From: Flavobacteriaceae bacterium
Lineage (GTDB): Bacteria > Bacteroidota > Bacteroidia > Flavobacteriales > Flavobacteriaceae
NCBI GenBank assembly: GCA_021647885.1
Contig: JAKITV010000002.1
Coordinates: forward strand, 124,001-188,000
Length of the DNA stretch: 64,000 nt
Direction of reading: 5' to 3'
Positions 6,084-15,223 of this stretch are shown here, piece after piece. Positions within the stretch are counted from its first letter, which is position 1. Every line of letters begins with the position of its first letter. The notes under the pieces are model-generated. The model saw nothing but the letters and a program-made list of their open reading frames with translations. It did not search any database and was not told the DNA's origin. The translations under genes and the position numbers were made by a program.

Positions 6084-8750
6084 TTAATATTTGAACAGGA
6101 TAGATAATAATAAAAAACGTTCTTGAAGATTGTACTCAAAAATAGAAGTTGAAAAATCTGAAGTATTAATACTCTTATATAAATTGTTATTTAATAAATT
6201 GTTCGCTTTAAGTAAATATTCTATTTTGCCTTTTTTAGGTTTATAACTCAATAATGCATCTATAAATAAATCTCCTGAAATATTTGCTCCTAAATCTGGA
6301 TTAAAATATTGAGAATTGAGGATAAATTTAAAATTACCTTTAATGTATTTTGCCTTAAAGTCATTCTGAAAAGAAGTAAATGAATTTGTTGTATTACTAT
6401 CTATGCTTTTAAACACATTATTTCTAAACGAAATTTTGTTTTCAAAATTAAGAGGTTTTTTAAACCCAGTTCTTATATGAAATTGCCCAAAGAGTGATTT
6501 GCTTCTGTTATTTCTTAATCCAGAATCATTAATAATATTTTGATATTCGCTAATTGAGTATGAGCTATTAACATTAATTGTTGATCTTAAAAAATGAATG
6601 TACTTCTCAGAATCAAGCCTAAAATCTAATCTGTTATTGTTTGTTATCCTAACTTTTGAAGTAAAAAAGCTAATATCTTCATCAACATTTAGCTGATTTA
6701 TATAGTCAAATTTTCTAAAGCTATACGTCGTACTTATATTAAATTGAAATAAGTTGTAAAAATCATTTATTCTAAATCCAAAAGTAGATGATTGATTATT
6801 GAATAAGTTAAAGTTAAATTCGTTATTGGTTAACGCTCTATTATTAATCAAAATTAATCCAGAATATACATTATTCGCATTAGGCAACTGGTTTGATAAT
6901 CTATAATTAGTATAAAAATGAGATTCTCTATTTAGAAAATAATTTATAGACAATAAAGGATAAATACCAAAGGTTGATGTATTTAATCTAGTGTTTATAT
7001 TATTATCGTTAAGGTTCACATTAAATAATTCATTCTTTATTTCGGTTGCAAATCTCCATTTTCCATATTTAAATTGATAATTTATATCAGCATACGTTTT
7101 AGTTAATTTATAATAAATAGTATTTGTTATAGGTGTATTATTAATGAGAATGCCTTGTAAATCGGAATCAACAAAATTTTCTTTAAAATCATATCCTAAA
7201 GAAAATGAGATTTCATTCTTTTTAATTTTTGAAAACAATGATGCTTCTGCATTAAAATTATTCTTTTTAAAATTAATATCTTGTAGTATATTATCAACTT
7301 CTGTTATTATGTTAACGCTTTGTGGTATGCTGTTAGTAGAAAGGCTTGTTGAAAACTGAAAAACATTAGTATTATTAATTCTATATGTGTATTCTAAATT
7401 ATTTTTTAAAAACAAATCTTTGCTTTCAGTAATGTTTTTAAAGCTACTCTCATTATTAAACCCATTAGATGTGTTTTCAATATTTTGAGAATCAAGTTTC
7501 CCTACTGATGTTAGAAGCGATTTTTTGTTAATATTATATATCAATTCATATTCAAGTGTATTGATAAGCGGTTTCTTGTTAAAATTATTTTGGGTTGAAA
7601 CATTTATTTGTTCATTATCAAAGTTATAAACTGTATTGGTAACTTCATTTCTGATTAATTTATCTTTAAATAAATTATAATTAAATCTAAATGATAGTTT
7701 TTTACTAAACTTATAAAGTGAATTGATACTACCAAAATAGTTGTTGTTTACTCTTGTCCTGTTATCTGGTAAGTTGGAATTAAAGTTATTATTAACCAAG
7801 TTATTTGTTCTTTGTGCAACTTCATTTAATTTAGCTATATCAAAAGAGTTAGAATTAAAATTATAAGGCGTGTAATTTTCTCCAATGTTATTATGACTAA
7901 TTGTTGAAAACCCTTTCAGTTTTTTTGAAACAGAAATAAGATTGGTTTTAAAATAGGTTTTATTTTCTGCACCAAAACCTATTTCAGCATTGCCAGATAT
8001 ATCTGTTTTTCCTTTTTTTAAAATAAGATTTATTGCTACATCATCGGAACTTTTAACACCTTTTAATAAATGATTGGTGTTATAATCTTCTATTGCTTGT
8101 ACTTCTTCAATAATTTCAGAATCTATATTTTTTGTGCCAATAATATAGTTTCCATTAAACAAGTTGTCACCATCTAATAAAACTCTTATTACTTGCTTTC
8201 CTTTAAATTTTATAATGCCTTTTTCGTTTATAGAAATTCCTGGCAATTTCTTTAATAAATCTTCAACAACACGCTCACTTCCATCTTTAAATTGATTAAC
8301 ATTATAAACCGTTGTGTCTTTTTTAACTATAATAGGTTTTTTCTTTCCTTCAATAAAAACCTCCTCTAATTCGGTTAAACGCTGTTGTAATTTAAAATCT
8401 AATTTATAGGTGTGTTTTTCTGAATTAAAAAGTATAACCTCATTGCTTAATGATAAATGGCTAATAATAGAAGTCTCAATTATTAATTTTGAGAAGTCAG
8501 CAGGCAACTCAATTGTGTAAAATCCCTTTTCATTTGTTGAAGTAAAGTTTATCAACTTACCACCTAAAGTTTTTACTAAAACATTTACATAAGGTATTAC
8601 CTCTTCCGTTTCATATTCAGTAATATTTCCCTTTAAAATATGTTGTGCAAAAGAATTAAAAGAAAAGAAAAAGAACAAAACCATACCTAAAAGTATGGTT
8701 TTGTTCTTTTTATAAATCTTAAAAATATTATTCTTTAATATAGGTTTCAA
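6084..8750 (-). CDS. outer-membrane beta-barrel protein with CarboxypepD_reg-like and plug-like domains
   Basis: The large exported protein has a hydrophobic signal (MVLFFFFSFNSFAQ), a CarboxypepD_reg-like domain (LKGNITEYETEEVIPYVNVLVK) and a plug-like region (VVEDLLKKLPGISINEKG, VLLDGDNLFNGNY). A long Asn/Ser-rich barrel of the OMP_b-brl_3 type completes it. The track start at TTG 8876 lies inside the GLPGLI gene and is unlikely. ATG 8684 would give a signal peptide with no basic residues, so I favour TTG 8750 (888 aa, MKPILKNNIFKIYKKNK...); this is not settled. The upstream GLPGLI gene is the usual partner of such barrels. The ATG at 8684 sits in a perfect 19-bp hairpin. Confidence 0.8.
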   Translation of the reverse strand: MKPILKNNIFKIYKKNKTILLGMVLFFFFSFNSFAQHILKGNITEYETEEVIPYVNVLVKTLGGKLINFTSTNEKGFYTIELPADFSKLIIETSIISHLSLSNEVILFNSEKHTYKLDFKLQQRLTELEEVFIEGKKKPIIVKKDTTVYNVNQFKDGSERVVEDLLKKLPGISINEKGIIKFKGKQVIRVLLDGDNLFNGNYIIGTKNIDSEIIEEVQAIEDYNTNHLLKGVKSSDDVAINLILKKGKTDISGNAEIGFGAENKTYFKTNLISVSKKLKGFSTISHNNIGENYTPYNFNSNSFDIAKLNEVAQRTNNLVNNNFNSNLPDNRTRVNNNYFGSINSLYKFSKKLSFRFNYNLFKDKLIRNEVTNTVYNFDNEQINVSTQNNFNKKPLINTLEYELIYNINKKSLLTSVGKLDSQNIENTSNGFNNESSFKNITESKDLFLKNNLEYTYRINNTNVFQFSTSLSTNSIPQSVNIITEVDNILQDINFKKNNFNAEASLFSKIKKNEISFSLGYDFKENFVDSDLQGILINNTPITNTIYYKLTKTYADINYQFKYGKWRFATEIKNELFNVNLNDNNINTRLNTSTFGIYPLLSINYFLNRESHFYTNYRLSNQLPNANNVYSGLILINNRALTNNEFNFNLFNNQSSTFGFRINDFYNLFQFNISTTYSFRKFDYINQLNVDEDISFFTSKVRITNNNRLDFRLDSEKYIHFLRSTINVNSSYSISEYQNIINDSGLRNNRSKSLFGQFHIRTGFKKPLNFENKISFRNNVFKSIDSNTTNSFTSFQNDFKAKYIKGNFKFILNSQYFNPDLGANISGDLFIDALLSYKPKKGKIEYLLKANNLLNNNLYKSINTSDFSTSIFEYNLQERFLLLSILFKY
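8668..8711 (-). promoter_or_regulatory. perfect 19-bp inverted repeat at the GLPGLI/barrel junction
   Basis: Plus-strand arms AAAAAGAACAAAACCATAC (8668-8686) and the exact complement (8693-8711) flank a 6-nt loop. In the mRNA of the minus-strand operon the 5' arm is A-rich and the 3' arm U-rich, like an attenuator or weak terminator. The in-frame ATG at 8684 of the barrel gene lies inside the 3' arm, so folding would hide it. Confidence 0.75.
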
Positions 8751-9477
8751 TGTTCTTTTTTGGAATTGACATATAACCTCCATCTGGATCTGTATAAGAC
8801 AAAAGTTCTTCATACTTGCGCTTGTACAAAGCAATAAAATCGTCCCAGGAAATAGCTTTGTCGATGTTTTTAACAAAAGGATTATCTATCTCTGCTTTTA
8901 CGTTTTTAATTTCTATTGTGTTCGCATTCATTTTAAAAACGCCATCAATAGATTCTACACTCAAAATTAAACCTGGCAATCCCCCAAACTTCCAAGGTCC
9001 AGTATTAAGCTGTACTTTTGTTGTAAAATAGGCTCTATAATCCCTGCCTCTATAATGTGTTGTTGCTTCTTGACATTTGTAACCTAATATGTCTTTATAA
9101 TTGTCTTTAAGAGACCAATTAAATATTTTTATATGGTCTTTAACAAGATAAAACTTAGACATTATTCGTTCATCCATAAAAAATTGTCCATTTCTTAAAT
9201 CTTTAAAAACTATAGGATTTTTATTAGGTCGGATTCGTAAAATAATGCCTCCTTCTTCTTTATCTTCTTCATCTATAAAATTAGAAATACCCAAAAAATC
9301 CATTTCATAAGCTGCAACACTTTTATTAGCAATTAAAACAGCATTAACACTAGTCTCTCTAGGCATTCCCTCAAGAAATAAAGTATGGTTGTAATTAACT
9401 ACAATAACACCCTCTTTAATTCCTCTCTGTCCATAACAAAATGAGGTAATAAACAATAAACAGTAAATTATTTTCAT
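8728..9477 (-). CDS. GLPGLI family protein
   Basis: The 249-residue exported protein has a signal peptide ending near residue 16 (CYGQ) and carries the family-naming motif GLPGLIL (in GPWKFGGLPGLILSVES). An acidic stretch DEEDKEEGG lies in the middle, and YRGRDYRAYFT precedes the motif. The family is restricted to Bacteroidetes and has no established biochemical role. It sits between a Cys-rich small exported protein (74 nt upstream) and an outer-membrane barrel gene (overlapping or close downstream), forming one minus-strand unit. I infer a periplasmic or outer-membrane accessory function for that set. Confidence 0.9.
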   Translation of the reverse strand: MKIIYCLLFITSFCYGQRGIKEGVIVVNYNHTLFLEGMPRETSVNAVLIANKSVAAYEMDFLGISNFIDEEDKEEGGIILRIRPNKNPIVFKDLRNGQFFMDERIMSKFYLVKDHIKIFNWSLKDNYKDILGYKCQEATTHYRGRDYRAYFTTKVQLNTGPWKFGGLPGLILSVESIDGVFKMNANTIEIKNVKAEIDNPFVKNIDKAISWDDFIALYKRKYEELLSYTDPDGGYMSIPKKNIETYIKE

Positions 9478-9550
9478 AGTTTTATTAATAAAAGATTTCT
9501 AACGTAGAAATTAGAAATCTTTTTAATAGTATTTATTCAACAAAATTATG

Positions 9551-9805
9551 TTACTCTATAGCCTTTTTAGCCTTTACTAATGCACCACCACAAGCCGCAA
9601 TTTCTGAAGCTGAACCACAACCTGCCGCACAAGATGTGTAAGAACTATGATATTGACCCATATAATATACATCAACGGTACAACACGTAGTACATACTTT
9701 TTCATTTGGATTACTATCCAACTTTAGGGCATTTTCTGTAACATCGCTATTTGCAAAAGACATAATCCCAAACATTAGCACAAATAAAATAAGAATTTTT
9801 TTCAT
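9551..9805 (-). CDS. small cysteine-rich exported peptide
   Basis: The 84-residue product has a signal peptide (MKKILILFVLMFGIMSFA) with a likely cleavage after residue 18. The mature chain of about 66 residues has six cysteines at 38, 41, 42, 59, 63 and 72 (CTTCC, SCAAGC, AACGG), enough for three disulfides. The C-terminus is lysine-rich (VKAKKAIE). I do not recognise a named family. It is the first gene of a minus-strand group with GLPGLI and barrel genes and is divergent from a response regulator. Possible roles are a secreted signal, a bacteriocin-like peptide or the substrate handled by the barrel; none is shown by sequence alone. Confidence 0.75.
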   Translation of the reverse strand: MKKILILFVLMFGIMSFANSDVTENALKLDSNPNEKVCTTCCTVDVYYMGQYHSSYTSCAAGCGSASEIAACGGALVKAKKAIE

Positions 9806-9904
9806 AATAATTAAATTTAAGTTAAATAAAAACTATAACTCAACAAGAATTATAACTATCAAATTATTTGATAAGCAAATAAACACATTTGTTAAATAAC
9901 TTAA

Positions 9905-9921
9905 ATGTGGTTTTACCACAT
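9905..9921. promoter_or_regulatory. candidate operator, inverted repeat ATGTGG-N5-CCACAT
   Basis: A 6-bp perfect dyad with a 5-nt spacer lies mid-way in the divergent gap between the Cys-rich peptide gene and the response regulator. It is 12 nt upstream of the regulator's candidate -33 box. The symmetry and place suit a dimeric regulator, but 6-bp dyads are common by chance. Confidence 0.35.
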
Positions 9922-9932
9922 ATTTTTGCCCT

Positions 9933-9966
9933 TTTGCAAACCTTAAAGAAACTATTTATATATTTG
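9933..9966 (+). promoter_or_regulatory. candidate promoter of the response regulator gene
   Basis: TTTG (9933-9936) and TATATTTG (9959-9966) are separated by 22 nt, matching the flavobacterial TTG/TAnnTTTG pattern and spacing. The predicted start of transcription would fall within the GATTAATA tandem repeats, giving a 5' leader of only about 25 nt. Confidence 0.5.
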
Positions 9967-9989
9967 ATTAATAGATTAATAGATTAATA
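9966..9989 (+). repeat. three tandem copies of GATTAATA
   Basis: Three perfect 8-bp copies run from the last base of the candidate -7 box to 8 nt before the ATG of the response regulator gene. A change in copy number would alter the length of the short leader. Confidence 0.85.
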
Positions 9990-9997
9990 ACTATTTG

Positions 9998-10654
9998 ATG
10001 CATAAAAACGAGATTAACCTACTTATTATTGAGGACGACTCAATTAGTGCAGAAGCTTACGCAAACATTGTAAATACAATACCCAATATTGCCTTTAGTA
10101 TATGTTTTGCTAAAAATTGTGATGAAGCCGTAAAGCAAATAAAACATAAAAAGTTTCACGTAGTATTGTTAGATTTACAGTTGCTAGTTTCAAAAAACGA
10201 ACGTTATGTTTGTGGAGAAGATTTAGGGCTTTTAATAAGAAAGACGCATACTAAAACTAAAATAGTTGTGTTAACTAATATTACAGACCCTTTAAGAGTT
10301 CGCAGTATTATTGAAGAAATTAATCCTGAAGGCTTTATAATAAAAACAGATATTAGACCGCAAAGTTTAATAGATGCAATAGTAATTGTTTTGAGTAATG
10401 AAATATATTACAGTAAAACAATAAAAGCGTATTCTAATAAAGTAAATTTAAACGGAATAGTTATAGATGATTTTGATAGGCAAATATTATATCATTTATC
10501 AATGGGAGAAAAGCTTAAAGATATTCCAAAATTTGTTGCATTATCTAAAAGAGCCATCGAGGAAAGAAAAACCAAGTTAAAGACATTATTTGATGTTAAA
10601 AAAGGGAATAATTATAATTTGGTAAAAGCAGCAAAAATGGCAGGTTTTATTTAA
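9998..10654 (+). CDS. response regulator (REC domain plus LuxR-like HTH)
   Basis: The 218-residue protein has a receiver domain: the acidic pocket LLIIEDDS at the N-terminus, the phosphoacceptor in VVLLDLQLL (about 56-60), VVLTNIT, and the conserved Lys in FIIKTD. The C-terminal 60 residues (DRQILYHLSMGEKLKDIPKFVALSKRAIEERKTKLK) align in pattern with a LuxR/NarL-type helix-turn-helix but are divergent. The ATG at 9998 is preferred to the TTG at 9995. No histidine kinase is adjacent, so it is an orphan here. It is divergent from the Cys-rich peptide/GLPGLI/barrel group and may control it (inference). Confidence 0.85.
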   Translation: MHKNEINLLIIEDDSISAEAYANIVNTIPNIAFSICFAKNCDEAVKQIKHKKFHVVLLDLQLLVSKNERYVCGEDLGLLIRKTHTKTKIVVLTNITDPLRVRSIIEEINPEGFIIKTDIRPQSLIDAIVIVLSNEIYYSKTIKAYSNKVNLNGIVIDDFDRQILYHLSMGEKLKDIPKFVALSKRAIEERKTKLKTLFDVKKGNNYNLVKAAKMAGFI

Positions 10655-15061: not shown

Positions 15062-15223
15062 ATGAAAATATTAGTCGAACAAAGTATTGAAATTTATAAT
15101 CAAATTAGACCTCATAAATCATGTAGCTTGCTTACTCCAAAGCAAATGCACAAACAAAATAAAGTGAACATCAAAACCTATAAAAACAAAAATCTGCGAG
15201 AGTTGCAACTCTCGCAGATTTAA
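15062..15223 (+). pseudogene. IS3-family transposase C-terminal remnant
   Basis: Not in the ORF track. The 53-codon frame reads ILVEQSIEIYNQIRPHKS..LLTPKQMHKQNK..IKTYKNK, the characteristic end of an IS3-family OrfB integrase core (IYN..RPH, LTP.QMH). The preceding roughly 200 codons with the catalytic DDE residues and OrfA are absent, and no terminal inverted repeats are evident. Its last 10 codons are formed by a perfect palindrome that is probably a terminator acquired or retained at the break. Confidence 0.8.
15190..15221. terminator. perfect 32-bp palindrome at the end of the IS remnant
   Basis: Sixteen-base arms (AAATCTGCGAGAGTTG and its exact complement) with no spacer overlap the stop codon of the transposase remnant. 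The shape is a bidirectional intrinsic terminator, here lying downstream of the minus-strand anchor-J lipoprotein gene. Confidence 0.75.

What the first reader, a model, noticed from the sequence alone, without database searches (positions are those of the whole stretch)
8684..10654. Cys-rich exported peptide, GLPGLI protein, outer-membrane barrel and divergent orphan response regulator
An 84-aa peptide with six cysteines in its mature part heads a unit with a GLPGLI protein and a large CarboxypepD_reg/plug/barrel protein. An orphan REC-HTH regulator is transcribed the other way. GLPGLI-barrel pairs are known from Bacteroidetes, but the association with a disulfide-type small peptide and dedicated regulator suggests a peptide secretion, sensing or immunity system not described to my knowledge.
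Basis: partly seen in the sequence, partly recalled or inferred. Interest (0 to 1): 0.7.

Follow-up and report, generated by a model that had tools for sequence, protein, structure and literature searches.

The report
Swappable peptide cassette with outer-membrane barrel
Many flavobacteria carry a three-gene cassette encoding a small disulfide-stapled exported peptide, a carrier-like periplasmic protein and an outer-membrane pore; the peptide and its carrier are swapped between genomes as a unit while the pore stays the same, which suggests an undescribed way to export diverse peptides.

Summary
The peptide, GLPGLI and barrel genes are real and form a conserved unit. The response regulator is only a neighbour.

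In 97 distinct GLPGLI-barrel loci of one barrel family (Flavobacteriaceae, Cytophagales, Chitinophagales), 73 carry one or two small signal-peptide ORFs just upstream. Their mature parts look unrelated but share an architecture: Cys, beta-hairpin, Cys, helix. Cys number is 2 or 4 in 69 of 79. AlphaFold models the window peptide's mature domain confidently. GLPGLI models as a LolA-like bowl.

- A strong RNA hairpin separates the peptide gene(s) from GLPGLI (92% of 50 loci; controls 12-24%).
- Among near-identical barrels, mature peptide and GLPGLI switch together to unrelated versions. In two Mesonia genomes the switch starts at the signal-peptide codons and ends at the barrel's putative Ton box, between 94-96% identical flanks.
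- Best-scoring GLPGLI-barrel pairs elsewhere form a separate, peptide-free branch.

Best reading: a polymorphic export cassette. The peptide is cargo, GLPGLI its dedicated periplasmic carrier (or immunity protein), and the TonB-type barrel the exit. Direction and function are inferred. No paper in the searched library describes it.

The parts
9551..9805 (-). exported Cys peptide (putative cargo): signal peptide about 1-18; mature beta-hairpin (39-48, 51-61) and helix (65-83); Cys 38, 41, 42, 59, 63, 72, of which C42 and C72 are the family-wide pair
9490..9523 (-). 14-bp RNA hairpin between the peptide gene and GLPGLI; a hairpin recurs here across the family without sequence conservation
8728..9477 (-). 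GLPGLI protein with signal peptide; predicted LolA/PNGF-II-N-like bowl; putative dedicated periplasmic carrier or immunity protein
6084..8684 (-). outer-membrane barrel protein: signal peptide, CarboxypepD_reg-like N-terminal extension (about residues 15-100), Ton-box-like LTELEEVFIEG (about 103-113), plug-like region and barrel
9998..10654 (+). REC-HTH orphan response regulator, divergent; a neighbour, not a conserved part of the cassette

Best explanation
It is a polymorphic peptide-export cassette. Step 1 (shown as far as sequence can): a small peptide with a Sec-type signal peptide is encoded first, and a hairpin in the mRNA separates it from the machinery genes; by inference this lets it be made in excess. 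Step 2 (strong inference): in the periplasm its Cys form one to three disulfides that staple a beta-hairpin to a helix. Step 3 (inferred): the LolA-like GLPGLI protein binds its cognate peptide and hands it to the periplasmic N-terminal extension and plug of a TonB-dependent-transporter-like barrel. Step 4 (inferred, precedent Oar/PopC of Myxococcus): the barrel lets the peptide cross the outer membrane, powered through its Ton box. The peptide+GLPGLI module (sometimes with the barrel's N-terminal extension) is exchanged between genomes on a constant signal peptide and constant barrel, so the carrier must match the cargo while the pore is generic. What the peptide does outside (toxin, signal or surface factor) is not known; the diversification resembles toxins or recognition molecules.
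For: Linkage: an automatic scan finds a small signal-peptide ORF at 65 of 97 GLPGLI-barrel loci, against 13/97 on the opposite strand, 18/180 other genes and 48/1940 shuffles; after curation 79 peptides at 73 of 97 loci. Reverse linkage: all small Cys-containing hits of the peptide profile whose surroundings were fetched lie beside GLPGLI and/or the barrel, and 3 of 3 hits of a shared signal-peptide sequence in 199 genomes do too. Disulfides: mature Cys 4.3% against 0.75% baseline; 72 of 79 peptides have an even number. Fold: hairpin and helix blocks at pLDDT 94-98. GLPGLI fold: PNGF-II N-domain E 2.8e-7 and Z 14-15, then RseB, LolA and LolB at lower scores. Hairpin: median z -4.74, 92% below -2 in 50 loci; controls 24% (other co-directional gene pairs) and 12% (after GLPGLI genes); in five of six two-peptide loci the peptides are 11-30 nt apart with no hairpin, which comes only after the last peptide. 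Module swap: Mesonia L069/L070 share 96% DNA up to the end of the signal-peptide codons and 94% from the Ton-box region on, while the mature peptide is 33%, GLPGLI 30% and N-terminal extension 35% identical. Of 30 locus pairs with barrels at least 60% identical, 24 have unrelated GLPGLI and every one of these has unrelated peptides (similarity at most 0.20); of the 5 with GLPGLI at least 45% identical, 4 have related peptides. Swapped parts are those expected to face the periplasm while the barrel stays 97% identical, which favours recognition from inside. Precedent: the TBDT Oar, with the same type of N-terminal extension, is required for PopC secretion (PMC6434023).
Against: No direct evidence of secretion or direction. 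Plug and TonB-receptor Pfam models do not reach their cut-offs and no solved TBDT is matched by sequence. GLPGLI could be an immunity protein rather than a carrier. About a quarter of the loci lack an intact peptide gene. Peptide-type GLPGLI was not shown to bind peptides. Pairs in the swap table are not independent (one barrel clade gives many).
Confidence: 0.5

Rival explanations
1. Polymorphic antibacterial peptide with cognate immunity: the peptide kills or inhibits relatives, GLPGLI is its periplasmic immunity protein, and the barrel is the exit or entry port.
For: Peptide and GLPGLI switch as a pair on a constant backbone. Tandem GLPGLI copies without a peptide for each occur, as orphan immunity genes would (L065, L077). 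A constant signal peptide is joined to variable mature parts with conserved Cys.
Against: GLPGLI keeps a strong motif (GPWKFxGLPGLILE) across proteins only 25% identical, unusual for immunity proteins. Peptide-free GLPGLI-barrel pairs are common, so GLPGLI works with barrels without any peptide. No toxicity evidence.
Confidence: 0.25
2. Import or sensing: the peptide is a pheromone, metal-binding peptide or scavenged factor released by other means and taken up through the barrel; GLPGLI receives it in the periplasm.
For: TonB-type barrels usually import; LolA-like proteins can act as receivers; divergent regulators (XRE-type) are found at 11 loci.
Against: When the peptide changes completely the barrel body stays up to 97% identical, whereas import specificity would sit in extracellular loops. 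No conserved sensor gene. Cys number varies and sequence is not conserved as in a metallophore.
Confidence: 0.13
3. Periplasmic gate or assembly factor: peptide and GLPGLI never leave the cell but help fold, plug or tune the barrel.
For: Gene order and co-inheritance; a small peptide could act as a removable plug partner.
Against: The peptide is far more variable than the barrel it would serve and unrelated peptides serve 97% identical barrels. The hairpin after the peptide gene(s) suggests differential expression rather than stoichiometric parts.
Confidence: 0.1

Closest known systems
Oar, TonB-dependent transporter required for secretion of protease PopC in Myxococcus xanthus (PMC6434023)
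   Same: Barrel with CarboxypepD_reg N-terminal extension and Ton box; export direction
   Different: Cargo is a protease not described with such a cassette; no GLPGLI partner, no variable cargo module; Oar without the extension still exports PopC, whereas here the extension sometimes varies with the cargo
LolA/LolB lipoprotein carriers and the RseB/MucB fold; N-terminal bowl domain of PNGF-II
   Same: Predicted fold of GLPGLI
   Different: Peptides have no lipobox; GLPGLI has its own motif and is encoded with cargo and barrel; sequence identity only 5-16%
Bacteroidetocins and class IIa bacteriocins (recalled; abstract of PMC8546649 read)
   Same: Small peptides of Bacteroidota or with beta-sheet, helix and disulfides
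   Different: From memory those use double-glycine leaders and peptidase ABC exporters; here a Sec-type signal peptide and an outer-membrane barrel
Polymorphic toxin-immunity modules (colicin/CDI type)
   Same: Variable cargo plus cognate partner exchanged on a constant delivery backbone
   Different: Here the constant parts are the signal peptide and a plugged barrel, and the partner is LolA-like with a conserved motif
Type IX secretion
   Same: Bacteroidota, outer-membrane export
   Different: Peptides are too small to hold the usual C-terminal sorting domain; no Pfam or NCBIfam match

Membership tests
GLPGLI family (TIGR01200) | score above curated cut-off | tested here: met
   134 bits against 50
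GLPGLI family (TIGR01200) | GLPGLI motif | tested here: met
   GPWKFGGLPGLILSVES in window protein; near-invariant in 60 relatives
LolA/LolB superfamily | half-barrel bowl fold | tested here: inconclusive
   PNGF-II N-domain Z 14-15 is clear; LolA/RseB Z 7-9 is middling
LolA/LolB superfamily | carries lipoproteins or lipids | not testable with these tools
   needs binding assay
TonB-dependent transporter (Oar/SusC architecture) | CarboxypepD_reg-like N-terminal extension | tested here: inconclusive
   window protein 29 bits against gathering 32.2, though E 1.1e-6; 7 of 10 relatives match at E <= 0.001
TonB-dependent transporter (Oar/SusC architecture) | Plug domain PF07715 and receptor barrel PF00593 above cut-off | tested here: not met
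   Plug 15 bits against 23.9; no barrel model and no solved TBDT matched by sequence
TonB-dependent transporter (Oar/SusC architecture) | Ton box before the plug | tested here: inconclusive
   LTELEEVFIEG in window, ELEEVVVVG in Mesonia (read); no functional test
Bacteroidetocin / double-glycine bacteriocin | GG leader instead of Sec signal peptide | tested here: not met
   hydrophobic Sec-type signal, cleavage-like FA/N
Bacteroidetocin / double-glycine bacteriocin | adjacent peptidase-containing ABC exporter | tested here: not met
   none among the window neighbours by inspection; not scanned by domain model
Described anti-phage defence systems (PADLOC) | match of cassette proteins | tested here: not met
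   no match for peptide, GLPGLI or barrel

The most novel reading that the evidence does not exclude
A widespread, undescribed outer-membrane export pathway of Bacteroidota in which a LolA-like carrier and a TonB-type barrel secrete hypervariable disulfide mini-proteins, with cargo and carrier exchanged together as an allelic module for competition or recognition between strains.
Probability: 0.45. Interest if true: 0.9.

Novelty: categorically new. Interest (0 to 1): 0.77.

Why it matters
GLPGLI proteins are widespread in Bacteroidota (257 of 299 family genomes hold this barrel family; 67 of 247 phylum genomes hold GLPGLI) and have no known function beyond a name. The cassette gives them a first testable role, would add a second example of export by a TonB-type barrel, and points to a large, unannotated pool of small disulfide peptides (no Pfam or NCBIfam family) that can be found by their position. 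The Mesonia module swap makes the carrier-cargo pairing directly testable.

Tried and rejected
Dedicated response regulator: rejected by neighbourhoods of its closest relatives. Peptide search by sequence alone: only two clear homologues, because mature parts are too divergent; searching by the barrel solved this. Known family for the peptide: none in Pfam, NCBIfam or PDB by sequence or fold; weak single hits (Tir, AimP, SduA and others) judged chance or domain sharing. Reading the barrel's N-terminal extension as always part of the swapped module: rejected; among swapped pairs its identity runs 0.24-0.71, and over all pairs it follows the barrel more than GLPGLI. Mantel correlations over all pairs are weak (0.19-0.23); the signal lies in close pairs. 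All GLPGLI-barrel pairs having a peptide: rejected; of 29 top TIGR01200 loci, none has a clear even-Cys signal-peptide ORF. Intrinsic terminator as the sole reading of the hairpin: only 13 of 48 have 5 or more T in the next 8 nt. More Mesonia alleles: none in the other 14 genomes. Rfam: no match.

Full report
Observation. The window holds, on the minus strand, a small exported Cys peptide (9551-9805), a GLPGLI protein (8728-9477) and a barrel protein (6084-8684), and on the plus strand a REC-HTH regulator (9998-10654).

Is the association real? By sequence the peptide finds only two clear relatives among 299 genomes of the family, and both lie directly upstream of a GLPGLI-barrel pair at another genome position, beside genes that look like trpS and plsC. 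Because the mature part diverges quickly, I searched with the barrel instead, fetched 40 loci and then 78 named loci across GTDB genomes. In 97 distinct loci with a GLPGLI gene before the barrel, an automatic scan finds a small signal-peptide ORF at 65, against 13 of 97 on the other strand, 18 of 180 other genes and 48 of 1940 shuffles. After manual curation (removing false ORFs, adding ORFs missed by the crude signal filter) there are 79 peptides at 73 loci; a few more loci hold degraded or unusual copies (L105, L131, L154, L178). In the reverse direction, a profile of the peptides and a shared signal-peptide sequence lead back to GLPGLI-barrel loci for every small Cys hit whose surroundings were fetched; the other hits are driven by the signal peptide alone and have no Cys-peptide architecture. 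Some of these loci had supplied the profile; L225, L230, L233, L235, L238 and L241 had not.

What the peptides are. Mature parts hold 4.3% Cys against 0.75% in other ORFs of the same loci; 37 peptides have two Cys, 32 have four, and 72 of 79 an even number. In an alignment of 39 peptides, the column of window C42 is invariant and that of C72 nearly so. AlphaFold gives a beta-hairpin (39-48, 51-61) and helix (65-83), with block pLDDT 94-98 from residue 41 on, without a match in the PDB or in Pfam and NCBIfam. Some loci hold other Cys architectures (for example L092, L095 and L096, and the own-genome locus L212), so the shared trait is 'small, exported, even Cys', with the hairpin-helix type most common.

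Partners. GLPGLI is modelled well (pLDDT 89) and matches the N-terminal bowl domain of PNGF-II (E 2.8e-7; Z 14-15) and, less strongly, VioE, RseB, LolA and LolB; the PNGF-II link is also seen by sequence. The barrel has a CarboxypepD_reg-like N-terminal extension (weak in the window protein, E at or below 0.001 in 7 of 10 relatives), then LTELEEVFIEG, which looks like the Ton box of Bacteroidota transporters (read from the sequence, inference), a plug-like region and the barrel.

Cargo and machinery are separated by a hairpin. The gap between the last peptide and GLPGLI almost always folds into a stem of about 12 pairs: 50 loci, median z -4.74, 92% below -2, against 24% for other co-directional gene gaps, 12% for gaps after GLPGLI genes and 17% for DNA upstream of the peptide. 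In the window it is 9490-9523(-), 14 pairs, z -4.92. The sequence differs between loci. In five of six two-peptide loci the peptides are 11-30 nt apart without a hairpin (in the sixth, L130, the gap is 69 nt with a weak one), and the strong hairpin follows the last peptide. About 16 nt remain before the GLPGLI start, too short for a promoter, and few stems are followed by a T run, so the likely role is to protect or partly terminate the peptide mRNA (inference).

Module exchange. Two Mesonia genomes share the same locus: 96% DNA identity upstream as far as the end of the signal-peptide codons, and 94% from barrel codon about 127, beside the Ton box, onward. Between these points the mature peptide (33% of aligned residues), GLPGLI (30%) and the barrel's N-terminal extension (35%) are different. 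The abrupt boundaries mean replacement, not gradual divergence. Over 30 locus pairs with barrels at least 60% identical, 24 have GLPGLI below 35% identity (background median 25%) and in all 24 the peptides are also unrelated (similarity at most 0.20; background 95th percentile 0.16); of 5 with GLPGLI at least 45% identical, 4 have related peptides. Pairs are not independent, since one barrel clade (L069, L070, L073, L136/L170, L137) supplies many. The N-terminal extension is replaced in some swaps and not in others (0.24-0.71). The parts that change with the peptide are expected to face the periplasm, while the barrel does not change, which argues that the peptide is recognised from inside, hence export; this is inference.

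Scope. The best-scoring TIGR01200 loci across the phylum are GLPGLI-barrel pairs or tandem GLPGLI genes without a clear peptide. In a barrel tree 17 of the 20 such barrels with enough sequence form one branch and the other 3 a second, apart from the peptide-bearing loci. The window's genome holds both kinds: two further peptide-bearing GLPGLI loci (L212, L214) and one peptide-free tandem (L209). Loci from Cytophagales and Chitinophagales MAGs and isolates (L125, L156, L161, L164) also carry peptides.

Regulator. The REC-HTH family is common (179 of 299 genomes), and the closest relatives (56-63%) sit beside TrkH-like or other genes. Divergent XRE-type regulators recur at 11 loci, including L063, L102 and L105 of the window's barrel clade. 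So a divergent regulator is a recurring option, but this response regulator is not part of the cassette.

Mechanism and novelty. Best reading: Sec export, oxidation, cognate GLPGLI carrier, exit through a TonB-type barrel, with cargo and carrier swapped together. The Oar transporter, which has the same N-terminal domain type, is required for PopC secretion and is the direct precedent for the direction (PMC6434023). The main rival is a toxin with GLPGLI as immunity. A search of open-access papers found GLPGLI in three papers, none on such a system; in Riemerella five GLPGLI genes are direct PhoP targets. Subscription papers and preprints were not searched, so 'not described' is limited to that library. 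Novelty is rated on the combination, which matches no described system I could find, not on the individual folds.

Noticed in passing
9967-9990: Three tandem copies of ATTAATAG just upstream of the response regulator start; could be a regulatory repeat or slippage.
   Followed up: no
15062-15223 (+): Short ORF resembling the C-terminal end of an IS3-type transposase (IYNQIRPHKS), probably an insertion-sequence relic.
   Followed up: no
L063, L074, L075, L102, L105, L122, L131, L144, L156, L177 and L123: A divergent XRE-type HTH gene of about 95-120 aa sits upstream of the cassette in 11 loci; possible specific regulator of the cassette.
   Followed up: partly
L105 and L154: Peptide genes look broken or frame-split beside intact GLPGLI and barrel genes.
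   Followed up: no
L063 2059-2379: Peptide with an acidic repeated tail (GVGYEDGDLG type) and a signal peptide in another frame.
   Followed up: no
L072 6053-6837: Two more peptide genes of the same type lie downstream of the barrel, besides two upstream: a four-peptide locus.
   Followed up: partly
L209 (own genome, contig C19 about 53.6-57.4 kb): Peptide-free tandem GLPGLI pair and barrel next to a thioredoxin-like gene: the peptide-free form of the pair.
   Followed up: partly
L184: A relative of the window's response regulator is broken by stops and lies near a double-glycine-leader peptide gene (LQGG).
   Followed up: no
L250, L251: Small exported proteins of about 115-125 aa upstream of tandem GLPGLI genes, with one or two Cys; perhaps distant relatives of the peptides.
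   Followed up: no
L173: A locus labelled Chlorobiota MAG has a peptide close to that of a Polaribacter MAG (L066/L160), probably a binning error.
   Followed up: no
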